DNA from: Haliotis asinina
Lineage: Eukaryota; Mollusca; Gastropoda; Lepetellida; Haliotidae
Assembly: GCF_037392515.1 (NCBI RefSeq)
Contig: NC_090295.1
Coordinates: 30,606,501 to 30,670,500 of the forward strand
DNA: 64,000 nt
Reading direction: 5' to 3'
The first letter of the stretch is position 1. Each line of letters opens with the position of its first letter. Positions 3,011 through 51,932 of this stretch are shown piece by piece. The translations under genes and the position numbers were made by a program. The notes below the pieces were generated by a model. It did not search any database. It saw only the letters and a program-made list of their open reading frames with translations, and was not told the origin of the DNA.

Positions 3011-3033
3011 ACTATCGAGTCTTGACAGGGGGC

Positions 3034-5715
3034 TCAATGGCGAGTTTGCGAGAAGCAGAACGATATGCTGGTGTTGCATAGCAGGCGAGGGGACGATCCC
3101 GAGAGGAGAGTCGATGATGGTGAAACGGTAGCTGGCGCAGGCAAACCCGTTCGAGTCTTGATTTGCCCGTGAGCAAGTGTAGACTCTGCTGACTTTTGCC
3201 TACAGATGGGTGATAGTGTCGGAAGCAGATCGACATGCTGGTGTTGCATAGGAGGCGAGGGGACGATCCCGAGAGGAGAGTCGATGATGGTGAAACGGTA
3301 GCTGGCGCAGGCAAACCCGTTCGAGTCTTGATTTGCCCGTGAGCAAGTGTAGACTCTGCTGACTTTTGCCTAGAGATGGGTGATAGTGTCGGAAGCAGAT
3401 CGACATGCTGGTGTTGCATAGGAGGCGAGGGGACGATCCCGAGAGGAGAGTCGATGATGGTGAAACGGTAGCTGGCGCAGGCAAACCCGTTCGAGTCTTG
3501 ATTTGCCCGTGAGCAAGTGTAGACTCTGCTGACTTTTGCCTAGAGATGGGTGATAGTGTCGGAAGCAGATCGACAGGCTGGTGTTGCATAGCAGGCGAGG
3601 GGACGATCCCGAGAGGAGAGTCGATGATGGTGAAACGGTAGCTGGCGCAGGCAAACCCGTTCGAGTCTTGATTTGCCCGTGAGCAAGTGTAGACTCTGCT
3701 GACTTTTGCCTAGAGATGGGTGATAGTGTCGGAAGCAGATCGAAAGGCTGGTGTTGCATAGCAGGCGAGGGGACGATCCCGAGAGGAGAGTCGATGATGG
3801 TGACAGGGTAGCTGGCGCAGGCAAACCCGTTCGAGTCTTGATTTGCCCGTGAGCAAGTGTAGACTCTGCTGACTTTTGCCTAGAGATGGGTGATAGTGTC
3901 GGAAGCAGAGCGACAGGTTGGTGTTGCATAGCAGGCGAGGGGACGATCCCGAGAGGATAGGCGATGATGGTGACAGGGTAGCTGGCGCAGCGAACCGGTT
4001 CGAGTCTTGATTCGCCCGTGAGCAAGTGCATACGCCGGTGATTTTACCTAGAAGCAGGCGATGTCTCAGCCACGAAGCAGGCAAAACACTGGTGTTGCAC
4101 AGAGGTTGAGGGGGCGACCTCGTGACGAGAGGCGATGATGGTAAAACGGTAGCTGGCGCAGGCAAACCCGTTCGAGTCTTGATTTGCCCGTGAGCAAGTG
4201 TAGACTCTGCTGACTTTTGCCTAGAGATGGGTGATAGTGTCGGAAGCAGATCGAAAGGCTGGTGTTGCATAGCAGGCGAGGGGACGATCCCGAGAGGAGA
4301 GTCGATGATGGTGAAACGGTAGCTGGCGCAGGCAAACCCGTTCGAGTCTTGATTTGCCCGTGAGCAAGTGTAGACTCTGCTGACTTTTGCCTAGAGATGG
4401 GTGATAGTGTCGGAAGCAGATCGAAAGGCTGGTGTTGCATAGCAGGCGAGGGGACGATCCCGAGAGGAGAGTCGATGATGGTGAAACGGTAGCTGGCGCA
4501 GGCAAACCCGTTCGAGTCTTGATTTGCCCGTGAGCAAGTGTAGACTCTGCTGACTTTTGCCTACAGATGGGTGATAGTGTCGGAAACAGAGCGACAGGTT
4601 GGTGTTGCATAGCAGGCGAGGGGACGATCCCGAGAGGATAGGCGATGATGGTGACAGGGTAGCTGGCGCAGCGAACCGGTTCGAGTCTTGATTCGCCCGT
4701 GAGCAAGTGCATACGCCGGTGATTTTACCTAGAAGCAGGCGATGTCTCAGCCACGAAGCAGGCAAAACACTGGTGTTGCACAGAGGTTGAGGGGGCGACC
4801 TCGAGACGAGAGGCGATGATGGTAAAACGGTAGCTGGCGCAGGCAAACCCGTTCGAGTCTTGATTTGCCCGTGAGCAAGTGTAGACTCTGCTGACTTTTG
4901 CCTAGAGATGGGTGATAGTGTCGGAAGCAGATCGACATGCTGGTGTTGCATAGCAGGCGAGGGGACGATCCCGAGAGGAGAGTCGATGATGGTGAAACGG
5001 TAGCTGGCGCAGGCAAACCCGTTCGAGTCTTGATTTGCCCGTGAGCAAGTGTAGACTCTGCTGACTTTTGCCTACAGATGGGTGATAGTGTCGGAAACAG
5101 AGCGACAGGTTGGTGTTGCATAGCAGGCGAGGGGACGATCCCGAGAGGATAGGCGATGATGGTGACAGGGTAGCTGGCGCAGCGAACCGGTTCGAGTCTT
5201 GATTCGCCCGTGAGCAAGTGCATACGCCGGTGATTTTACCTAGAAGCAGGCGATGTCTCAGCCACGAAGCAGGCAAAACACTGGTGTTGCACAGAGGTTG
5301 AGGGGGCGACCTCGAGACGAGAGGCGATGATGGTAAAACGGTAGCTGGCGCAGGCAAACCCGTTCGAGTCTTGATTTGCCCGTGAGCAAGTGTAGACTCT
5401 GCTGACTTTTGCCTAGAGATGGGTGATAGTGTCGGAAGCAGATCGACAGGCTGGTGTTGCATAGCAGGCGAGGGGACGATCCCGAGAGGAGAGTCGATGA
5501 TGGTGAAACGGTAGCTGGCGCAGGCAAACCCGTTCGAGTCTTGATTTGCCCGTGAGCAAGTGTAGACTCTGCTGACTTTTGCCTACAGATGGGTGATAGT
5601 GTCGGAAGCAGATCGACATGCTGGTGTTGCATAGCAGGCGAGGGGACGATCCCGAGAGGAGAGTCGATGATGGTGAAACGGTAGCTGGCGCAGGCAGACC
5701 AGTTCGAGTCTTGAC
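3034..5715. repeat. Satellite array 2, 170-bp period with higher-order units
   Basis: About 16 units of 170-171 bp are arranged head to tail. Most are one common type. A distinct pair of variant units (with GCGAACCGGTTCGAGTC and with a GTCTCAGCCACGAAGCAGG segment) recurs at about 3,900-4,150, 4,580-4,830 and 5,090-5,350. The spacing between pairs is 681 bp and then 511 bp, that is four and three units, so there is a higher-order repeat of variable length. The overlapping long frames on the minus strand arise because 170/171 is not a multiple of three and the unit lacks stops in several frames; they are not evidence of a gene. Confidence 0.95.
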
Positions 5716-6780
5716 AGGAGACTCTAGGTCGATTTGGTGGTAATTGTTCATGATTTGCCGTGTCAAATCTTTGCGATTCCCTAAGGTGTGGCATATGGGA
5801 AATGAGCGGTTTATTGCTGTAGTGTCTACAGCTACGTGAGACATCTACTTGATGGGTAGATGCGACGGCATGACATGCCAGACGGACATTGACGTTTTGT
5901 TATGCATGTTGATGTAAAGCGTAGTGTGTGTTGTTCACGTGTAGCAGCTCAACTGCCAACAGTACTTGAAGAACCACGACCTCCTTCCTACGTCGACTCA
6001 AGTGTGCCTTCACAGCAATCAGACTTTGGAATGAAAGTTGTATCCTTCCAGGTTTCATGATTTGTATGATACATTTGTGTTAACATATTTGAGGTATCTG
6101 TCCATTATGTACGGCAATTGTATGGGTATTCAATAATTCGTGAGCTATGGTTATCATGGTGCATGCTAAATTAAAAGAACAACCTAACGCTGTTCCCTTC
6201 TAATCCAAACCATTAACCTCCAATCAAAGTAACATAAAATTAAAACGGAAAGTCCACGTCCTTCTCTCTACACCAAATCACTAACCCATTCCGAATTAAC
6301 CTAAATGACATAACCTTAAAGCTAAAATCATCAATACCGACAATGTTAAAACTAATCCGCTAACCCAAACCTAAATGACATAAATTTAAAGCTAAAACCA
6401 TGAATACCGCGGTGCGCATAACTGAATAATAAACACTGACAATGACAGAACGTAAAACTGGAGATAAACGCCAAACTAAAAGGACAAAAGTAACACCGCC
6501 TAAACCACTTAACCCCAAACCAAAAACATTAAATTAACGTGAAAAAATTACCAAGAGAGAGAGAAGGTGACTACGAAACTCAAACATTACCAACTCAAAC
6601 CAAAAACACCTAACACCACTAATAAAAAACTAAAAGCGCGAAATAAACAAAGTAGGTGGAAAAGGGTAGATGATGTAACCCTTGACCCAAGTGAAATGGT
6701 ATACTTGCATCAAGGTCTACAAAGTCAGTCGTTCGGCCGAGGCATTGATAATATGTTACCGGGTGAAGGTGCCATATTTT
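5716..6780. other. AT-rich spacer with degenerate short tandem repeats
   Basis: No gene is recognised. At 6,290-6,420 a segment of about 65-80 bp (CTAACCCAAACCTAAATGAC, then AAAGCTAAAA and ATACCG) is present twice in tandem with changes. The stretch 6,170-6,560 is strongly strand-biased: rich in A and C, with almost no G or T runs. At about 6,780 it passes straight into satellite 3. Confidence 0.6.
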
Positions 6781-15020: not shown

Positions 15021-15118
15021 CTTAGCAGTCAGATACGAGCATCACGGCACTTGTGCTGATATTATTTGACACAACTCATTGTCAGAAATCGTTTTTGAAG
15101 ACTAACTTCATTCAAGTC

Positions 15119-15685
15119 ATGGCCTGCGCACTTTTTGAAGCTCCTGTTTCAAAGCCACTGCACTTTGCCATCCTGGGGCATAGTTTCGTGCGGCGACTTG
15201 TTCAAGTCTGTCCCCCTCCACATGGCATCCTCACTACCGTGCGTGGGATCGGAGGGGCGACCGTCGCTCGGATGAAAGCTGAGGTGGATGCCCTTGATGC
15301 AGCTTTTCAGGGCATTGTGTTCTTTCAAGTGGGAGAGAACGACGTGTCGGCCTCTACTGATCCTCGGGACCTGGTCGAAGACCTGCTGGATCTTCTGGAC
15401 TACCTTCGGTGGAAACGGCCAGGCTCCAGGGCGGTGATAGGGAGTCTGTTTCCGAGGGTAAAACCAAGGAACATGACGGTCTCTGCCTACAAGCGGAAGG
15501 TGGAGGAGGCGAACCGGCGCTTGAAGAAGATGTTGCGACGCCGTCTGGATGCCACCCTTTGGGAACACAGCCAGCACATGAGGATGGGACCTGCGCTGCT
15601 AGCCAAGGACGGCGTACACCTGACACCAAAAGCTAATGGGCAGTTCTGGCTTTCAATTCGTAAGTGTATGTGTAGGTATGTTTAA
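15119..15685 (+). CDS. SGNH/GDSL-hydrolase-like protein, 188 aa
   Basis: SGNH hydrolases are small esterases/lipases with four conserved blocks, and they also occur as accessory domains in some retroelements. Visible here are block I-like ILGHSFVRRL near residue 20, a glycine block RGIGGATVARM near 45-55, block III VGEND near 80 and a block V-like DGVHLTPKANGQFW near 165-180. The catalytic Ser (GHS) and the Asp/His pair (DGVH) are therefore plausible. I chose ATG 15,119 because it has a good context (GTCATGG) and begins just before the domain; the frame upstream of it is open only from a non-ATG codon. GTAAGT at about 15,660, after LSIR, is a good splice donor, so the last residues may be intron. 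Codon use is GC-rich, unlike the surrounding satellites. It could be a host gene, or a hydrolase ORF left by a retroelement. Confidence 0.65.
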   Translation: MACALFEAPVSKPLHFAILGHSFVRRLVQVCPPPHGILTTVRGIGGATVARMKAEVDALDAAFQGIVFFQVGENDVSASTDPRDLVEDLLDLLDYLRWKRPGSRAVIGSLFPRVKPRNMTVSAYKRKVEEANRRLKKMLRRRLDATLWEHSQHMRMGPALLAKDGVHLTPKANGQFWLSIRKCMCRYV

Positions 15686-32747: not shown

Positions 32748-33449
32748 CTAAGCGAAACTCCACCGCGATGAAGGTGGATTGTCATCTGGTGTTATAGATT
32801 CCAGGAGAGTAGGGAAGTGATCGCTTCCACAAAGGTCATCATGTACAGACCATTCAAATTCGGTGTAAACATTCGCATCTGTGAGGGACAGATCAAGTGA
32901 AGAATAGGTTCCAGTGGCAGTGTGTAAATAGGTGCTGGATTCATCATTAAACACACATAAATTATTATCAGAAATAAAATCTTCAGTGACCTTGCCTTTA
33001 TTGTTTGCACTTGTACTTCCCCATAGAGGGTTGTGCCCGTTTAAATCGCCCATGATGATACAAGGCTTCGGTAGCTGATCATACAGAGTCTGAAGATCAG
33101 ATTGTCTGAGGGAAGATGATGGTGGAATGTATAAAGAGCACAGTGTAAGTGTAATATGCAAAGTTAGTCGAATAGCAACGGTTTGAAGATTAGTTTTTAG
33201 ATGAACAGCACTATGGGTGATGTTCTGTCTTACTAATATACTAGAATCTCCAGTCACTTTATCTCCTGGAGGAGAAAATGAATGGTAACTGATGTACTGC
33301 CGTAAATCAAATGAATCGGTATGCTTAAGACAGGTCTCTTGTGGACAGAATGCTGAAGGTTTAAAATCCTGGACTAACAACTGTATCTCATGAAAATTCT
33401 TTCTAAGCCCTCTGCAATTCCATTGGACTATATTAGATGAATGACTCAT
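32748..33449 (-). pseudogene. LINE copy B: apurinic-type endonuclease domain of ORF2
   Basis: This 233-residue stretch begins MSHSSNIVQWNCRGLRKNF, the usual start of ORF2. Endonuclease landmarks in order are NCRGLR, QETCLK (catalytic Glu), YIPPSS, IIMGDLNGHNPLWGS (Asp/Asn), and the terminal SDHFP. All key residues are present, so the domain itself looks whole. It stops at 32,748, before the RT, so the polyprotein is interrupted. This domain nicks the target DNA to prime reverse transcription. Confidence 0.88.
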
Positions 33450-33508
33450 GGAGGTTCAATGGGTGATCTCGCACGTGAGCGTGATGACGCAGAACTCCTC
33501 ACAGAACT

Positions 33509-40515: not shown

Positions 40516-41586
40516 AGGGGAAAGGAATATCTGCTTGACAGAAGAGGGAAAAGATGTCACCTCGCCTCAACTGTAGTTCATATTATTTACATTTGTAGGA
40601 GTTAATAGTCAAAAACAAATAACTGAGTCATTAGTTATGCACAAACACATCGTAACTGAATGTTATTTCTTCATAAAATGCAATGATCCACGGCTGAACA
40701 CTACAGTATTTTTAGTAATATGTTTCACAAATATGCTAGCATCAATTCATTAGTCATCTGCTTGGATTCAGGAAATTAAATTTAGAATTCGAAAGCGGAC
40801 TATATTATGATATGTGTATTTCATAATTGTATATTCTATCATACAAATATACAATTTGTCTTCCTCGAATTTTGTCTACGTCGTGCTGAATCGTTCAGTT
40901 AAATATCTGTTCGATATCATTATCATTATCATTAAATCATCATAAATCTATACTCTGTTTTAGTCACAATATAGCTGATCTTAAATCTTAACTCACTCAC
41001 TCACTCCCTCATTCACTCACTCACTCTCAAGTCTACCTAATGATTGATGCATAGCCTATTTCAATGACGACGTCGCACGTTTACACTGGACTTTGCTCTT
41101 GGGGAATTCAAGAGGAACGTGGACACCATGGGTTTACGCTGGTCTGTTGTTGAGTATGGCTAATTATCACAATTTTGACCAGTCAGAGGAATGTTATATT
41201 TCAGTTTGGAAGATACTGGTTAATGGATACAGTTTGACCAATCAAATGCCTAGTCCAGCATCGCATACATTTTATCTGAATGCCAACTTTGAAGCAAATC
41301 TCTAAATCATAAGTAGGTCGAGGCACGTCGCAAGCCTGGTGACTCTTTGTCAGGCCCCGAATTCTCGAAACGAACTTCAGTTTTTACTCAGTCTCAAACA
41401 GAGACAATTTCAAACAGTGGAATATTTAACTCAGATGCATTTTAAATTCTACCATGGCTATGTGAAATGCGTGAATTTGATTGGTCAATCAATAAAAGTA
41501 GACACTATCAATTTCGATTGAAAATGCGCCTGTTTTCATGGCGAACGTATACAACACTGCCGGACTACTTCCGCTTGACCACCAAC
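40516..41586. other. Intergenic; truncated LINE/SINE tail near 40,975
   Basis: No gene recognised. At 40,978-41,027 the sequence CTTAAATCTTAACTCACTCA with further ACTC units matches the terminal 3' end of LINE copy B, so it marks an extremely truncated retroposed copy. The 550 bp after it, up to the start codon at 41,587, would contain the promoter of the Crypton-type gene; I cannot name an element in it. Confidence 0.55.
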
Positions 41587-41596
41587 ATGGCGGATG

Positions 41597-41824
41597 TGTA
41601 GTGATTTCCTACTTCACTATCGGTTTATGCACCTAGTAGAGTCGGTCGCAGATGCCACCGGGCGAATATGCCTACTAAACTGAGGGAAATGATTCAACCT
41701 GACAGCTAGTCAACATACTCACGGTAATGGCTTCCACGAACTCTGGCTGGTGATCGGCAATCTCCGGCACCTTCCCCTTGGGTCATGACCTCGGGGCGTC
41801 CGGCGCACAGCTCCGATCACCACA
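41597..41824 (-). repeat. LTR (3' in element orientation)
   Basis: A 228-bp terminal repeat, TG...CA bounded, next to the polypurine tract. It reads the same as the copy at 46,712-46,939. Confidence 0.9.
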
Positions 41825-42404
41825 CCCCCCTCCGTTTTCAAGGCTCCTTCCCGCGGATTTCATAGCCATTAAACCCCTCTTACCGAGGTAATCACTGAGG
41901 GGCTACCTTTGAAAACATCTTGCCCTGGGGGAACGGTCCTGGTTCCCCCCCTCAAAGGCCAGTTCCTTTCACCGCCCACAATGCGTAAGCAAGTCCTTAT
42001 GTCTCCGGGTCCACACGCTCTTCGAGTAGACCTAGCCATTCCCCAACCTTTCCATAGGCTGTGGTTTTGAGTGTTCTCCAATGACTCTTTAGTGGAAGGG
42101 AAAAGTGACAGTCCTCACAGTTCATCGCAGACTCTTTCACACCCTCCAACTGTCTCACTGTCTGGGAAAACTGATAGCACACACAATTTATTGTTTATCA
42201 TTCTTTGATTGGGTCCCGTCCTTGTTACGGGACAACCAGCCACACACACTCTCTCCTGAGGGTAGGCTGAGTCAATCTGCACACTTGTTTTTCTCCCCAC
42301 ACCTCTTCTTTCAGGTGTTTTGGGTTACACCCCCTCCCCTCTGGGGGTGCAAACGTCAGACCTTCTCACACCCCACCTCTGTGCGGGGTGACTCCCCAGG
42401 CTTC

Positions 42405-43282
42405 TCACCACCAGAACAGCCGGGTGGCGTTCTCAGTCGCCGCCCTCAGGAAGTCCTTGGTGGTCATCCCTCTGGCTTCGGCGACCAAGTCCCCCACCAA
42501 GCACAGCAGCGCCGGGGAATTCCTCCTGTGTCCCTCTGGGGGCATATATGGGGAGTCCGTCTCTGCCAGCAGGCGGTCCAGGGGGACAACTCTCAGCCCC
42601 GCCACTTGGTCACTGTTAAACCCCCATACCTGTCCCGCGTAGCCGAAGTATATGTTCGGGAATGTCCTCAGCCACTCCAGGACCGTCTCTTCACCCCCAG
42701 AGAAGCAGTGGAGAAACAGCGGCTGTTCTGAAGGCAGATAGGTGAGCAGGAGTTCCATCATTCGGGCGTACGTCGCCATTGCCTCCTCGTCTCCATTGGG
42801 CCCCCTGATATGTATGACTACCGGCCTCCCTGCCGGTACGTGAGGTAGCAACTCCTTCAGAGTTTGTTCTTGTTTCTTCCACTCCTTGGCTGGAACGGAG
42901 TGGTCCAAGCCGATTTCTCCCACGATGCAGGCAGCTGCCTGAAGACGTCGTCGGTGAGGGCCTCCACCTTCTTGGGGTGCAGCCCCACAGCGGTCCTATA
43001 CCGGGGGTCGGCACTGACCTGGCTTGGGTAAGTGGGGGGATCACAATAGACTTCCACCCCCCAGACCGGAAGTCGTGCCATCCTGTGATCCACTTCAGGA
43101 GCAGCTTGCAGTAAGTCTGGGGTAGTTCCCAGGGGTGCTGCTCCGAAGGTAGCTTCCCACGTCCAGTCTAAGTGGAAGTGGGAATCCACTAAGTGTTCCA
43201 TCGAAGCCAACACCTGGGCCTCGCCCTCCTGCATCGGCCCCAATGTCGATGACCCTTGAACGATAGCCTCTGCCGCCACCAC
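42405..43282 (-). mobile_element. TatD-type metal-dependent nuclease region of the LTR element
   Basis: Downstream of Gag, the minus strand encodes a TatD-family region. Landmarks of that metal hydrolase family are visible in order: the HxH motif in DSHFHLD (about 43,170), AVGLHPKK (about 42,970), GEIGLD (about 42,915), VIHIRG (about 42,810), FLHCFSGG (about 42,700) and ETDSPYMPPEG (about 42,550). TatD proteins are 3'-5' DNA exonucleases or related hydrolases. Finding one in the place where pol would be expected is unusual. The region is nearly whole. Confidence 0.8.
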
Positions 43283-43571
43283 TCTTCACATTCACCAACC
43301 TCTTCTCCGGGGTCACCCCAAGTCGCCCCATCCGTCTGGACAGCCCCAGTCTCCTCCTCCACCTCTCCCCCCTTTTCTAAAAGTGGGGTACTGTCGGTCT
43401 CGGCACCAGCATGTGGTGGCCATGGCGGCAAACCCGGAGTGTCTAGTCCTGAATTACTGTGGGCTACACTCACAGTGCACTCCTGGTCCTGACTGATGCC
43501 GCCAGTGTCTGGTGGCCAGGGAGGCAGACCCTTAACCTTATCTGTATCCTTCTGGGGGCGAGCCACCGGGT

Positions 43572-45696
43572 CTATGTGCTCGTCCCCTGGCCGTTTAACG
43601 GGTTGTCTGCAAAGGACACTGTCGTGGCTACCGGTGAGCCACTTTTTAACTGTGGGCAGGCAGCCTTGAAGTGGTCGGTGTCCCCACAGTTAAAACACTC
43701 CTGCGATTTCCCTGGGCTGGGCGTACGGGAGCGTGATTTCGTGCTCTCCAGCTTCCTCACTGCAGTTGTTAGCTCCTGCACTGAGTGTACCAGCTGCGAT
43801 ATTTCCGACTTGACACACTTCACCTCCTTGTGCAATGTTCCAATCTCAGTCTCCATTAGTGAGACTCTCTTCGCTAAATCTGTTACCACCTGTGCGCTGT
43901 TGTTGGTACCCCCCTCACACCTGCGAGAGGTACGTACCTCCCTTGGTGGCTCTTCAGGCTCCTCTACTGACACTGTCAGCAACTCCCGACGGGGTTTACT
44001 ATCAGGTGCCTGGGAATTGTGTTGATAATGCCTCACCGCTTCTATTGCATCTTCCAGTGAGGTGGGTTTGAGGTTGTAGATTAAGTTCCCTGCTTCCCGG
44101 TTCTCGCACCCCATGCAGAACCTAGTTACGGTCTCCTGGTCAACAAAGTCCTCTGGAAGACCTGGGAACGCTCGGGACGAAGTAGCTACTAGTCTCTCTG
44201 CCCAAGCTTCCAGTGACTCGCCTGGCTCCTGTTTTAGGGATTGGAATCTCAATCTTGCTGATAGTGGAGGCTCAACTATGCCAAATCTCTTCTGTAGCTT
44301 TTCCATCATCTGCCCATAGGACAAGTAGGGGTCCCTCAGCTGACATGTGGTGAAGAAAGCACTTGCCTCCGCCCGCACACAGAAGCACAGTTGACAAAAG
44401 CTTGTCTTCTTCTGACCATCCTTCTCTTTCTGCCAACTTGTCAAACTTCAGCCTGAACGGCGCCCAAGCCTCCTTCCCGTCATAGCTCAGTGCTGAAGAG
44501 GCTATCCGGGATCCCCCTTGATCTGCCGGGCGGGGTCCCTGGTTCCGCCGTCCTCTAGGGGTGCCCGGGTACATTTCGTCCTGTTGGTGCTGTATTGCAC
44601 CCTGACGGGGCTCCTGCCTCCTATTTCGCCGGCCCTGTCCCCCCATAAAGGGCTCTGCCGTGCCATCCTGGCCCTCTTCTTGCTCTGCCAGTCCAGGCCC
44701 TGAATCCCGGTGAGGCAGGATGACTCCACACCCCAGTGCCTCACCCGGGGGTACATAGCACGCTGACTTTTTAGCATTCCGCTCCTTGATCATATCAGTT
44801 ACTGAGCCCATACCCATGCACTGGATATTGGTGTCTGCCTTCTCTGCTCGGGCTTTCGGGCGAACATCCCTACCCCTAGCCTCCCCTTGTGATAGTCTCG
44901 GCTTTGCTGCATTCCCCACTTGGGGCAGGGTGGGAGTTATGGGTTCTGACTTCAACCCCCAGGTCGCCCTTGACTTCCGACTCGGTCTATCCACCCCTTC
45001 CTCCCGGGGTCTATCAAAATCGTTCCCCCTGTATGGGCCATCCCTGCACTCCTCTTCTGGGTAACCTGACGATTGACAGTCCCTAAAGGTCCTCACAGAC
45101 TGGTCCTCTGACCTTTGCTGTAAGAGGGACATTGCTGACATCATGTCTTCCTTGTCGGCTGACCACCTCTTGTCCATGTTCTCCAAGACATGCATCATCT
45201 TGTCATACTTCTGTTCAGTCTCCAGCATCTGAGAGGCTGTCTCCTCACTTCTGCGATCTAGGCCTTGCATGGTGTTCATCATTTTGGCGAACACCACTGC
45301 TAATCCCTCGGGTGTTCCTTGCCTCCGCCCCGGGGGGCTGCCACCGGCACACTCCTCCCCACCGGACAAATGGCCCTGATGGTCGGCGTCATCACCCTCA
45401 CCATCAGCCTCTTGGGAACGCCCAGCTATGTCCCCTGCCTCTGACTCGTCGGCCTCTCCGCCAGACGCAACCTTCATAGGGTGTGGGTTTCGCCTATGGT
45501 CATTGGGCTGAAAGTCCAATACTGCCCATATGTCACTCTCCCCTCGGAATTCCTCCATAGCAAACACATCTTCCCTAGACACATTATATCCTTGCTCTCT
45601 TATATCTGTTAAACGCCCTATTTGTCTTTCTGACAGCCCTTTGTTTCTCATGTCTGCAGGCATGTCAAAGTTCACCCTTATCCTCCGGCAAAACAT
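43572..45696 (-). mobile_element. Gag region of the LTR element
   Basis: Over this stretch the minus strand encodes a long charged N-terminal part, a retrotransposon-Gag-type helical region (about 43,950-44,350, with the words LQKRFG, ESLEAWAERL and TRFCMGCENRE) and a CCHC zinc knuckle of the form CFNCGDTDHFKAACP at about 43,690. This is the classic layout of a Ty3/Gypsy Gag that packages element RNA. The part is close to whole. Confidence 0.8.
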
Positions 45697-46426
45697 GGTT
45701 ATTGTTAAATGAAATCACCAGAGTATATCACTGCTAAAACTAATAAATAGTTATACTCTCTCCCGGAGCGAAGGGAAAGAGCAATTAAGCAAACTACTCC
45801 CCTTAATTCTAAAGAGGCGATTGTTAACACACTACAAGCAGTGTTAATATATAACAGCGTAAGTAAGCGTGAAGCGTACAAATACTGCCACACGAGTTGT
45901 GCAATTAGGATGTAAATGTCTTACAACAGTTTCTACCACAATGCAATCCGCTGAAAGTGCACCGCACACCACTGTCTACAAGCAGCCAAGCAACGAAATG
46001 CACTTACCCCGGTCGCTTGTGCATTCAATCCGGTTCCTAGAGTGTCACATCCAATCCGAATAGAATCCGAAGCACATAAATCCACAAATGAAAAATATGT
46101 CCGGCGGTTCACCGTCCTTTACACACAAAGTCCACACGTGACTTGTCCATGTTCAATGTCAACACACTCTCTCCGGAAGAATATTGCGGCACTTCCTCCC
46201 GCACATGCGCAGTAAGAGGCACGAGGCAGCACAGTGCGCAGAAACAGCAATTTCCAATTTAATCGTAATTTTTCACTATAAGCCACCCCGAAAGCTATGT
46301 ACCTATAATAAATTGGTAGATAACTAGCCCCTGACAGAGAGAAAAGGTTAGCGCTGTTTCCCTATCGCTGCACCCAGCCACTTGGTTGGGAGACCAATAG
46401 GTCTTCCCCCCTCCCGTCCACGTGTG

Positions 46427-46450
46427 CCCCCCCCCCCCCCCCCCCCCCCC
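46427..46450. repeat. Poly(C) tract, 24 bp
   Basis: An uninterrupted C run inside the LTR element, flanked on both sides by CACGTG-type words (CCACGTGTG before, CACGTGGG after). It may be prone to length error in sequencing. Confidence 0.95.
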
Positions 46451-46711
46451 ACGTGGGTAGCTAGCTAAGCGATAAAATCTCCACTTAAAGGAAATTTCCC
46501 ACCAAATGCCACCTAATCCTCTCCGCCAACAGTCCGGAGATAATGAAAAACCACCTTTGGTCGCAATAAAAAGGCTAAACTTGCCGAATTACGCCAACAA
46601 GGCGTTAGACCATGTGACCTCCCAAGCGCGGGAAAACCGAGACTTGGGCGGCTATGGTCCGATGGGCGAAAAAAGTTATTTCTCGCCCAGTTTCGGTGTT
46701 CACAGCGCCAC

Positions 46712-46939
46712 TGTAGTGATTTCCTACTTCACTATCGGTTTATGCACCTAGTAGAGTCGGTCGCAGATGCCACCGGGCGAATATGCCTACTAAACTGAGG
46801 GAAATGATTCAACCTGACAGCTAGTCAACATACTCACGGTAATGGCTTCCACGAACTCTGGCTGGTGATCGGCAATCTCCGGCACCTTCCCCTTGGGTCA
46901 TGACCTCGGGGCGTCCGGCGCACAGCTCCGATCACCACA
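46712..46939 (-). repeat. LTR (5' in element orientation)
   Basis: A 228-bp terminal repeat. The internal sequence next to it starts with a TGG-type primer-binding candidate. The GATG target duplication follows at 46,940. Confidence 0.9.
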
Positions 46940-49375
46940 GATGTAAACATCGCAGACGCGCTTGATGTCGGTATATTTTCAGTCGGCAGTTTTGCAGACG
47001 TATATGGCCCAGACCTGGACGAATTTGATGATGATGATGAGTTTGACTCAATCCTGGCAAACCTAACCAATTCAGGTGAATTGACCCTCGAAACCTTATT
47101 ATAACAACATTTTGGATATAAATCAGTTTGAAAGAGTTCGTCTGCTAAGAGATCAGTCAGAAAAACATCTCTCTTTTTTAAATATTTGTAAATATTTCGT
47201 TACAACATAACATAAGTACGTAATCATTTTCAACCTCGTTTATTCTCAGAAATAACAGAAAGTGCCATACCAGGACAGAATAAATATGCACCTAATGATG
47301 AGGAAACAACTGTTAGCGATGGGAACATAAACACGGGTAGGAAGTTATGGAAGTAATGAAAAACATAACAGTCCGGAACTATTAAAAAAACGCAAACAAC
47401 TTATTATAAGATTTTACGAGCTTTGTTTACAATGTTAAAATGGGGCCTGCAAATTAGTGCAATGGGCCAGCTGATTAAGATAGCCAACACAATAGATCTA
47501 CACTTGTATCTCGTGAATGGATTGGGTTTTTTTCTTTGTTATTTTCTTTCAAAATAAAAACCCAGTAAATTATTCCCACAGACACAAGAGATGAGAGACA
47601 AACAACTTTTTGGCAAAGCTGCTGCCGCTTCGCAACAATTGATGAAGCTAACTTGGACTCCATTTTTTTGGATGGCCGACCCAAATCAACCCTACGGACA
47701 ACACACTGGGGTGTTAGGATTTTTCAACGTGGGCGCAAAAGTCATAAAAACATGCATTAAACCTTGTCTCGAAAACAGAATAATACGATTATTTCCTCCT
47801 TAATTGTGAGAGAACCTCATACCATATAAGCTTCCATTATATCAATTTTTAAACACAATCACTCTTTATATGCCCAACCATAAACAAACAATATTGAACA
47901 TTGCACAAAGCCTTGTAAATAGTCCTATTTATGGACAAGATGACATCAAAATGTGAAATAAGTGCCTACCTGGTAAAGAGTATGTTTGTTTCCATTTAGA
48001 ATGGATAACACATCATGAGATATCCATCAAGTTTGAAGCACTTCCCAAAGAAAAACTGGCGTCACACCTCCGACACTTTTATGCAGAACTTCGCACTAAA
48101 CATGGCAAATTCTACTCGAAGTCTTCTTTCGTCGGAATCCGATCGGCGATTCACAGGCATCTGAGATCTCCACCGTTTGAAAGAAACATCAATATTTAGC
48201 AGGACATTGAGTTCCATAGTGCTAACAATGTTTTCACAGGAATGCTAAGAAAAATTAAAAAACTTGGTCTAGACAATGCACAACACCACGAGCCCATCTC
48301 ACAGGCAGGTCTCGCAAATATTAGAAGTTCTCTATCTGTTGACACACCAGTTCAGTTGCAGAAAAAGGTGTGGTTTGATTTGACTTTGGGCTTTGGTCGC
48401 AGGGGAAATGAAAATCAGCGTGATTTGACGATGGATTCATTTGCTGTTGAATCCGACGATGTAGGTATGGAGTATATAACAATGACACACTCCGATTCCA
48501 CCAAAAATCATCCCGGGGGGTTGCATGATAAGTTCCAGGCGAAACCCCGAATTTACGCCACTTACACTGCACCATGCCCAGTTGCTTCCTTCAAAAAGTA
48601 CATTGCAAAATTGAACAAGCAGAATCCCGCTTTCTACCAACTTCCTCGGAAGAATGTCACTGCTGGCGATCCATGCTGGTACACATTGAAACCACTTGGC
48701 CACAACACTCTGTCAGAAATGATGAAAACCATTTCAAAAGAATGCCAGGTTAGTCGCATTTACACCAATCATTGTGTTAGGGCCACCACTATCACTCTCT
48801 TGTCGCATGCCGGGGTAGAGGCACGATAAATCATCAAGCTCACTGGTCACAAAAATCAACAGTCCTTGATGAGTTACAACACTGACTCGTCGGTCAATCA
48901 GAGAAGATATTCTCCAATTCTGCAAGGTTCACATTCGACAGTCGGTACTTTAGCTTCCTCAACTGTCACCTCAAATTCAAATTTCAATCTCGCGCAGAAT
49001 GTAAATACTGCCTCGTCCACCTCCTTCCAAATTTCAAACTGTAACGTCACGGTAAACAATTTTTTCCAGGAATCTAATAAGGTCAGACCAGTCCATTATC
49101 GTGTTGGGAGAGGGTTATCCAAATAGACTGGTTTCCGTTGTATTTAGATTTGTTTATCTGAACCAAGCTGTTAAGCATTAAATTATTGCAATGTATAGAC
49201 AGTTGTTTGTTTTCTGTAGACAATACGTTTTAGGTTACGATGTATGTTAATAAATACGAAAGGCACCTATTATACCTTTCACAGACGAGTTCAATTCGCC
49301 TCTCGCGCCATGCCGGATTACGCAGTGCCTTCCGCGGAAGGAAGGAGTTCGATTTTAAATCGGTTATGGTAGAAT

Positions 49376-50416: not shown

Positions 50417-51932
50417 TACTGAACATCATTGAAAACGCACCACCCCTAAAATTGTGGATTTCTAAGAGCAGAAGTGAGCAATCTATGTAAATTTTACATA
50501 TTTGTGTAGACCAATGTTTGATAAAGAAAAGAAGCAAAAAACAATCAAGCAAAACAGTGAAGATTTAATGCAGCTGACAATGAAATAAAGATGGGGTCAA
50601 AATGGAAAGTCAGTAGCGTGTATGACCCCCGTTAGCAGCAACACAAGCTGTGCAACGTCTCCTCATTGAACGGATAAGTCTCTGAATAAAGTCCTGAGGC
50701 ACTGCATTCCACTCTTGCTGCAAGGCATTGTCGAGTTCCCCAAGGTTGTTGATCTGCGGACGACGTGCGAGGCGTTGGCCGATGTAATCCCACAAGTGTT
50801 CGATGGGTGACAAATCTGGTGACAATGCAGGCCAATGAAGTAGAGGAATGTTGTTGTTAGCCAGATACTGTATCGAAACACGTGCAGTGTGGGCTCGTGC
50901 ATTGTCATGTTGAAATGTGTGCAGATCTTGATGCTGGTGAAAGAAGGGAACGACGTTGTTCTGAAGAATGTTGTCACGGTAGTAAACGGCATTCACTCTG
51001 CCACGACAAACAATCAGAGCGGTTCTGTGGTGATAACTTATCCCTCCCCACACCATAATGCTGTCTCCACCCCACCGATCGGTTTGCACAACACAATCCT
51101 GATGATAACGTTCACCCCGTCGACGCCATACCCATAGACGCCCGTCAGCATTTCGCAAGTGAAAACGCGACTCGTCGGAGAACACCACACCATGCCAACG
51201 TCGTAACAACCACACACGATGCTGTTCAGCCCATTGTCGGCGTTCACGGCGATGCCTGTCAGTCAGGATGGGTCCAACGTAAGGGCGTCGACAACGTAAC
51301 CCTGCCGCACGGAGACGGCGTCGGACGGTGGAAGCGCTGATCAAATCACGTCGACCCTGGACAGCGTTGGCGGTTCTGGCAGCGGGCAAGGTTCGATCCC
51401 GAATATGGCGCCGTACAATGTCTCGATCTTGACGAGGGGTGGTAACACGTGCCTGACCTGGGCGTTGCCGGTCCCTGCTGGTTCCTGTTTGTTGGTATCT
51501 GTTAGCAAGCCTCAGAATGGTCGAATGATGACACCCAAATCGTCGTGCAATGTTTCTGCTTGAAGCGCCGACCTGCAACATACCCAAGGCCTGTTCTCGT
51601 TCCTCTGGTGACAATCTTGGCATGGCGAAAAAACTTTACTTACGAAAGTACTGCGAAAATGAGAACGGTTTTGTGCCGAAGGTCATATATACCCCTGAAC
51701 AGCATGCTTTCTGCATGCAATTTGTGCCCTTCGTGTGTGATGTGCATGAATTTTGTTGTTTTCATGTGATGTGTTCGATGATGTGTTCGAACGATCCGTT
51801 TTTTACTGTAGAGCGTTATTTACGATCTAGTGTGTTATTATCAAAATTCCCACCATTAATTTTCCATTTCCAAAGGATTCTATTGCCTTATTTCAAAATT
51901 TACAGGTGGTGCGTTTTCAATGATGTTCAGTA
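50417..51932 (-). mobile_element. Tc1/mariner element, apparently complete
   Basis: Terminal inverted repeats begin TACTGAACATCATTGAAAAC at both ends and continue to CGCACCACC, flanked by TA (50,415-50,416 and 51,933-51,934). The total is 1,516 bp with one long transposase frame. The matching point in transposon copy 1 (about 25,636-25,642, CAAATATGATTGTG) has no insertion, which shows the element landed after the two large copies separated. Confidence 0.92.
50610..51623 (-). CDS. Tc1-type transposase, DD34E, 337 aa
   Basis: Catalyses cut-and-paste movement of the surrounding Tc1 element in the nucleus, binding the inverted repeats with an N-terminal paired-like helix-turn-helix domain (MPRLSPEEREQALGMLQVG; ARRFGCHHSTILRLANRY, residues 1-45) and a second HTH (about 65-115). 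The DDE triad is visible: FSDESRF (about 150), FQHDNARAHTA (about 241) and SPIEHLWD. Exactly 34 residues separate the second Asp from the Glu, the DD34E signature of Tc1. The length of about 340 is normal, and the ATG at 51,623 gives the standard start. The frame is open throughout, so the protein may be functional. It is arginine-rich, with a possible nuclear signal before the catalytic domain. Confidence 0.93.
   Translation of the reverse strand: MPRLSPEEREQALGMLQVGASSRNIARRFGCHHSTILRLANRYQQTGTSRDRQRPGQARVTTPRQDRDIVRRHIRDRTLPAARTANAVQGRRDLISASTVRRRLRAAGLRCRRPYVGPILTDRHRRERRQWAEQHRVWLLRRWHGVVFSDESRFHLRNADGRLWVWRRRGERYHQDCVVQTDRWGGDSIMVWGGISYHHRTALIVCRGRVNAVYYRDNILQNNVVPFFHQHQDLHTFQHDNARAHTARVSIQYLANNNIPLLHWPALSPDLSPIEHLWDYIGQRLARRPQINNLGELDNALQQEWNAVPQDFIQRLIRSMRRRCTACVAANGGHTRY

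What the first reader, a model, noticed from the sequence alone, without database searches (positions are those of the whole stretch)
41597..46939. LTR element that carries a TatD-type nuclease domain and no visible pol
The element has identical-looking 228-bp LTRs, a GATG target duplication, primer-binding and polypurine candidates, and Gag, but where reverse transcriptase and integrase should be it has a TatD-like region with the family's metal-binding landmarks in order. Gag-only, pol-less LTR elements are known (TR-GAG type). A captured TatD nuclease in that position is, to my knowledge, not a standard family. TATDN-like genes are common in mollusc annotations, and some may really be such elements. 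A nuclease might act in cDNA processing or host defence; that is speculation.
Basis: partly seen in the sequence, partly recalled or inferred. Interest (0 to 1): 0.87.

Follow-up and report, generated by a model that had tools for sequence, protein, structure and literature searches.

The report
Abalone retrotransposon family encoding TatD nuclease
The stretch is a pol-deleted copy of an abalone LTR retrotransposon family whose full-length members carry, after the usual genes, their own TatD-type nuclease gene that selection has preserved, a combination with signs of being present in other invertebrates too.

Summary
In detail: 41597-46939 (minus strand) is an LTR element with 228/228 identical LTRs, GATG target duplication, gag, a real TatD domain (Pfam 5e-29) and no RT or integrase. 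The interpretation changes: TatD did not replace pol. LTRs 96% alike flank three 10,947-bp Ty3/Gypsy elements in the same genome (Haliotis asinina): gag, pol (PR-RT-RH-IN-PHD; open in two of the three), then a third ORF of 793 aa (zinc finger, helical domain, TatD). The window copy lost pol and the front of ORF3 by a private deletion; its frames are broken. TatD lies 229-701 nt before an LTR of this family at 13 places, is under purifying selection (dN/dS 0.07-0.22), keeps the metal ligands, and homologues with finger and TatD occur in bivalves, sea urchins and a hemichordate. A second Gypsy lineage also has TatD after integrase. A gag-PR-TatD form with one shared junction has at least three copies. 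One copy deleted TatD. Searches of the held library found no TatD in retroelements. Its role is inferred: trimming RNA/DNA replication intermediates is my best guess (about 0.35). Closest precedent: rotifer LTR elements with a DEDDy exonuclease ORF3.

The parts
41593..41596 (.). target-site duplication GATG, left
   Evidence: same size at 6 of 6 other LTR pairs
41597..41824 (-). 3' LTR, 228 nt
   Evidence: identical to the other LTR; 41 matches in the genome incl. these two
41825..41839 (-). polypurine tract candidate (GAAAACGGAGGGGGG)
   Evidence: sequence; GAAAACGGAGAGGGG in other copies
42405..42995 (-). TatD domain, C-terminal part (GEIGLD, H, H, ETDSPY)
   Evidence: Pfam PF01026 5.1e-29; motif positions
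42857..43285 (-). TatD domain, N-terminal part (HFHLD, GLHP), in another frame
   Evidence: aligns to ORF3 residues 515-619; no Pfam match by itself
43346..43360 (-). deletion junction joining pol N-terminus to ORF3; 15 nt shared imperfectly by both parents
   Evidence: only this copy spans it
43361..43593 (-). remnant of the pol N-terminus, before the protease
   Evidence: ORF 43189-43689; matches the full-length copies
43593..43599 (-). GTTAAAC, candidate -1 frameshift site in the gag/pol overlap
   Evidence: window; full-length copy; function inferred
43572..45714 (-). gag with PNMA-like capsid and CCHC knuckle; in two frames (44272-45714 and 43572-44447)
   Evidence: 714-aa single frame in two full-length copies; Pfam
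46700..46710 (-). primer-binding site candidate TGGCGCTGTGA
   Evidence: sequence; tRNA-Ser assignment recalled, genome check not answered
46712..46939 (-). 5' LTR, 228 nt
46940..46943 (.). target-site duplication GATG, right

Best explanation
The window holds a recent, non-autonomous insertion of a Ty3/Gypsy LTR retrotransposon family of Haliotis asinina whose full-length members (10,947 bp) encode gag, pol with a C-terminal PHD finger, and a separate third ORF (793 aa) made of a C2H2-type zinc finger, a helical domain and a TatD nuclease. Shown: structure, copies, target duplications, selection, conserved metal ligands. Inferred: (1) the copy lost pol when reverse transcriptase jumped between a 15-nt imperfect repeat in pol and ORF3, probably from two co-packaged RNAs of different subfamilies, since the right side is far more diverged than the left; (2) it was copied and inserted by proteins of autonomous relatives; (3) ORF3 is an accessory nuclease of the family: the zinc finger holds nucleic acid and the TatD barrel trims RNA or DNA 3' ends, or RNA in RNA:DNA hybrids, of the element's replication intermediates before integration. 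Confidence: family architecture 0.95, deletion derivative 0.95, active nuclease 0.8, that particular substrate 0.35.
Against: No enzyme assay, expression or particle data. One copy lost TatD yet has an intact-looking 3' LTR, so TatD is not needed in cis. The window's TatD is frame-broken. Nothing shows which substrate is cut. Several compared copies carry stops or deletions, so their dN/dS includes decay after insertion; that pulls values up rather than down.
Confidence: 0.8

Rival explanations
1. Counter-defence: the ORF3 nuclease destroys host small RNAs or other nucleic acids that silence or sense the element, rather than processing its own cDNA.
For: Accessory ORF with a putative nucleic-acid-binding finger and a nuclease under strong selection; lineage-restricted presence; the protein could act in trans, so deleted copies tolerate its loss.
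Against: No target known; dN/dS is low rather than showing the fast change expected of an arms race.
Confidence: 0.25
2. Host-genome role: TatD resolves R-loops or nicks at the target or at transcribed copies, or the PHD finger and ORF3 together choose chromatin for insertion.
For: TATDN2 resolves R-loops (PMC12709183 passages); the pol of this family ends in a PHD finger, as do 117 of the 120 pol relatives listed, by my count of their Pfam column.
Against: No insertion-site preference was tested beyond the duplications of 7 copies.
Confidence: 0.15
3. One-off capture: a host TatD gene was picked up by one pol-less element, without a role.
For: The window's own deletion is private.
Against: TatD at the same place at 13 sites; a second Gypsy lineage too; ORF3 relatives in several phyla; purifying selection.
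Confidence: 0.02
4. The pol-less TatD elements are a successful parasite class in their own right, kept because TatD helps them in cis.
For: C3:52.5, C4:7.7 and C13:27.3 share one identical PR-ORF3 junction, so that deletion form multiplied; pol was lost or gutted at least three times with TatD kept.
Against: A deletion must stop short of the 3' LTR anyway; C13:52.85 lost TatD; no excess over chance was tested.
Confidence: 0.15

Closest known systems
Bdelloid rotifer LTR retrotransposons Vesta/Juno with DEDDy exonuclease or GDSL ORF3 (Rodriguez, Kenefick and Arkhipova 2017, PMC5408684; passages seen)
   Same: LTR element with an enzymatic, non-envelope ORF3 after pol, catalytic residues largely kept; a 3'-5' exonuclease in that place
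   Different: Another nuclease fold (DEDDy, not TatD); the passages report no zinc finger-helical module, though a Cys-His-Cys motif is noted in two of them; that paper found no significant departure from neutrality within genomes, here dN/dS is 0.07-0.22; TatD has 0 occurrences in that text
Phalaenopsis Ty3/Gypsy with AlkB m6A demethylase ORF (PMC9289625; passages seen)
   Same: Gypsy element fixed an extra nucleic-acid enzyme ORF
   Different: Plant, 25 kb, demethylase, not a nuclease
TR-GAG, LARD and BARE-2 type non-autonomous LTR elements (recalled, no call)
   Same: LTR element lacking RT and integrase, moved in trans
   Different: Window copy also keeps TatD and is a single deletion event, not a gag-only family
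Animal TATDN2 and bacterial TatD/YcfH
   Same: TatD barrel with HxH, E, H, H, D
   Different: 48 of 50 ORF3-type rows form a branch without any of the 26 bacterial rows (support 95/79, below the starred level); sea-star 'TATDN2' P0048 shares the finger-HWR-TatD make-up but fell among bacteria in that tree, and L006 fell beside a long bacterial branch; no vertebrate TATDN sequence was in the tree

Membership tests
Ty3/Gypsy LTR retrotransposon | pol order PR-RT-RH-IN with Gypsy-type domains | tested here: met
   full-length copy; the window copy itself lacks RT/IN and belongs by LTR, gag and junction
Ty3/Gypsy LTR retrotransposon | LTRs with TG..CA and short target duplication | tested here: met
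   (4 bp)
Ty3/Gypsy LTR retrotransposon | placement in a named clade (Mag, C-clade and others) | not tested
   no reference RT set was used
TR-GAG-type gag-only element | gag as only ORF, a multiplied family | tested here: not met
   TatD present; junction unique to this copy
TatD nuclease (PF01026) | profile match and metal ligands HxH, E, H, H, D | tested here: met
TatD nuclease (PF01026) | nuclease activity | not testable with these tools
   needs purified protein
LTR elements with enzymatic ORF3 (rotifer type) | separate enzymatic ORF between pol and 3' LTR | tested here: met
   in full-length copies
LTR elements with enzymatic ORF3 (rotifer type) | homology to DEDDy or GDSL ORF3 | tested here: not met
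   only TatD matched ORF3 in Pfam
Retrovirus-like element with envelope | env-like ORF3 | tested here: not met
   ORF3 matched TatD alone, no envelope family

The most novel reading that the evidence does not exclude
An undescribed, animal-wide lineage of Ty3/Gypsy retroelements (molluscs, echinoderms, hemichordates) whose integrase ends in a PHD finger and whose third gene is a zinc finger-TatD nuclease, kept over hundreds of millions of years as a dedicated replication or counter-defence enzyme; a share of the genes annotated as TATDN2-like in invertebrate genomes are copies of this gene, and some (for example the 447-aa ORF at C12:21.19 Mb, with no pol found upstream) may be domesticated.
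Probability: 0.6. Interest if true: 0.78.

Novelty: new variant of a known kind. Interest (0 to 1): 0.66.

Why it matters
The fixation of extra conserved domains in LTR retrotransposons is considered rare (PMC9289625, passage). A nuclease kept there by selection points to a step of the replication cycle, or of the conflict with the host, that gag-pol alone does not cover, and near-identical copies with an open ORF3 make this testable. It also warns that TATDN2-like gene models in invertebrates may be mobile-element genes; one is listed among the non-Hox genes of the giant squid Hox cluster, beside a pogo-transposon-derived name (PMC6962438, one passage; its sequence was not examined).

Tried and rejected
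Rejected: TatD in the place of pol; a gag-only family; TatD as contamination or chance ORF. Bacterial rows named Sedimenticola or Thiodiazotropha with ORF3-type TatD (P0021, P0031) are probably clam host DNA in symbiont assemblies, since P0031 shares contig length and assembly name with a Gypsy pol (P0166); this is inferred.

Led nowhere: viral and genome contig scans gave 1 and 80 loci (best 80 of 581), matching the TatD part only at 26-36% identity, because the patterns chosen were general TatD motifs; the neighbourhoods of these loci were not read. Nothing on the helical domain's fold: the structure searches were filled by the TatD barrel and that domain was not predicted alone. The BFVD search gave one giant-virus protein with E under 0.001. 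The tree has no vertebrate TATDN1/2/3 row, so the origin of the captured gene is open; 1 of 77 rows dropped out (P0040); B_P0104, L026 and L006 are long branches. The tRNA check of the PBS and the search for an empty site did not complete. Of the 41 LTR places, 26 were read at least in part and 15 were not: one search asked for more letters than remained. Of the three single LTRs brought in and read late, C4:15.81 is solo within 1.5 kb on each side, C6:52.64 and C4:10.10 have gag behind them and their far ends were not read. In one search only 99 of 2818 candidates were scored, so RT counts are lower bounds.

Other species' layout rests on equal contig lengths only: 4 of 61 ORF3-type rows equal one of 118 pol rows, 0 of 74 control rows; at 400 other offsets the mean was 0.165 and the maximum 3. 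The control wrongly included P0048, an ORF3-type row; rows without contig length (P0248, P0254, P0231, P0240) and P0001 were left out; the lists showed 120 of 320, 120 of 755 and 22 of 22.

Literature: searches (TatD or TATDN2 with retrotransposon, LTR, transposable element, reverse transcriptase, domesticat*, transpos*) returned 4, 8, 9 and 7 papers; judged from listings, and from passages in three of them (searches's companion listing), none seems to describe TatD in a retroelement. PHD in Gypsy integrase: searches; the Ginger paper PMC2836005 (passages) has PHD in a Ginger transposase; CR1 PHD was seen only as a reference title; PMC3286476 and PMC3601003 had nothing to the point. Most subscription papers are missing from the library, and Repbase was not searched.
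Full report
What is there. The element lies on the minus strand of the window, which is C16:30606501-30670500 of a 1.143-Gb assembly. The organism is taken to be Haliotis asinina: a protein filed under that name sits on a contig whose length, 55,702,281, equals contig C14. The LTRs (41597-41824, 46712-46939) agree at 228 of 228 positions and are flanked by GATG. Gag shows a PNMA-like capsid and a CCHC knuckle, the 3' half a TatD domain at 5.1e-29, and no RT or integrase. Gag occupies two frames and the pol/TatD region three, so three frame breaks are present although the LTRs are identical; I infer that the breaks were in the copied RNA, or arose very recently, or are assembly errors.

The family. 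The LTR finds 41 places. Six further pairs compared all have 4-bp duplications. Three (C14:16.45, C14:3.11, C9:12.53 Mb) are 10,947 bp with identical LTRs. They code gag (714 aa, seen whole in two), then after a -1 step over a GTTAAAC heptamer pol with protease, RT, RNase H, integrase and a C-terminal PHD finger, then after the pol stop a 793-aa ORF3 ending in TatD. In the C9 copy a stop splits pol near the start of integrase. TatD was found by profile in 26 rows of the genome. Fourteen rows, at 13 places, lie before a same-strand LTR; counting the nearest row of each place the distance is 229-701 nt, nine of them 587-590 nt. The other 12 rows have no such LTR within 20 kb; they include host-type exons and the L006, L044 and L026 loci. 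Of 12 places with an RT of this family, TatD is detected by profile at 8; one has degenerate fragments (C1:10.78), one has ORF3 with the middle, TatD included, deleted (C13:52.85), one shows only an ORF3 start in the 3 kb read (C4:58.43) and one has no ORF3 in the stretch read (C2:39.88).

How the window copy arose. Its left part matches a full-length copy at 94.3% over 3,604 aligned columns, its right part matches ORF3 at 84.8-86.4%, and the two overlap by 15 nt. The shared stretch is imperfect, 13 of 15 by eye. A search with the junction hits 31 other places, all on one side only, so the deletion is private. It removed PR, RT, RH, IN, PHD and the zinc finger-helical part of ORF3. The two sides differ in age: dS to the full-length copy is 0.34 in gag and 0.74 in TatD, the LTR differs by 4%, and over its whole length the right side is nearest to the gag-PR-TatD copy at C3 (88.3%). 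I infer a template switch between RNAs of two subfamilies. Other deleted forms exist: C3:52.5, C4:7.7 and C13:27.3 share one identical protease-to-ORF3 junction, so that form multiplied; C10:19.89 lost most of pol by yet another deletion. I infer that these moved with enzymes supplied in trans.

How widespread. ORF3 homologues covering 97% or more of the finger-to-TatD query come from H. rubra, Saccostrea, Ruditapes, a sea urchin (Diadema), a symbiont-named assembly and unnamed sources; Argopecten, a hemichordate (Ptychodera) and Lytechinus rows aligned over about half the query by BLAST, but the Argopecten and Ptychodera rows carry the finger in the alignment. By my count 117 of the 120 pol relatives listed carry a PHD finger. 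Four ORF3 proteins share the exact contig length of a PHD-bearing pol, one of them also the assembly name; this is indirect evidence for the same layout in other animals. In H. asinina a second, distant lineage also has integrase followed by TatD: L044 with RT, RNase H, integrase and a finger-bearing TatD ORF, L006 with the integrase C-terminus. One copy each of three related families without TatD (RT 49-53%) showed no PHD finger in the pol tail by eye; two of the three have a zinc-finger ORF after pol, one at significant, one at marginal score. In the tree 48 of 50 ORF3-type rows group apart from bacterial TatD (support 95/79), all five Haliotis rows together at 100/100.

Mechanism. Shown: an accessory gene, selected, with an intact active site. 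From known biology: E. coli TatD is a 3'-5' exonuclease on ssDNA and RNA, TATDN1 and TATDN3 also cut AP sites, and TATDN2 is an RNA 3'-exonuclease and endonuclease on R-loops (PMC12709183, passages). Inferred: ORF3 trims RNA or DNA ends, or RNA in hybrids, during cDNA maturation; counter-defence is the main rival.

Novelty. Extra enzymatic ORFs in LTR elements are known, including a DEDDy exonuclease (PMC5408684, passages). TatD in that place was not found in the held library, nor in the mollusc LTR survey PMC6238403, where the word does not occur. I file it as a new variant of a known kind.

Noticed in passing
L042:1838-2593, L043:2457-3974: Related Gypsy families of the same genome (RT 51% and 49%) carry a zinc-finger ORF directly after pol (C2H2 1.2e-8 and a marginal 0.013), without TatD; the finger may be older than TatD in this ORF.
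   Followed up: partly
L026:8244-9584 (C12:21.19 Mb): A 447-aa open frame with finger and helical part (29%) and TatD (33%) but no pol found in 8.2 kb upstream; possible domesticated copy.
   Followed up: partly
41396-41596 and 46944-47143: With the element left out, the flanks read as one frame starting ATGGCGGATGTA for some 57 codons: the insertion may sit in the start of a gene or of another mobile element.
   Followed up: partly
15026-15685 (+): A GDSL lipase ORF (6.5e-11), a domain also known from retroelements (PMC5408684 passages).
   Followed up: no
3012-5899 (-): Overlapping open frames built of a repeated unit of about 170 bp.
   Followed up: no
48200-48829 (+); 50610-51635 (-); 32748-33455 (-): DUF3504 ORF, Tc1/mariner-type transposase and LINE-type endonuclease: the window is rich in mobile elements.
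   Followed up: no
P0048: Sea-star protein named TATDN2 has a finger, an HWR motif region and TatD like ORF3, so that name covers element-like proteins.
   Followed up: partly
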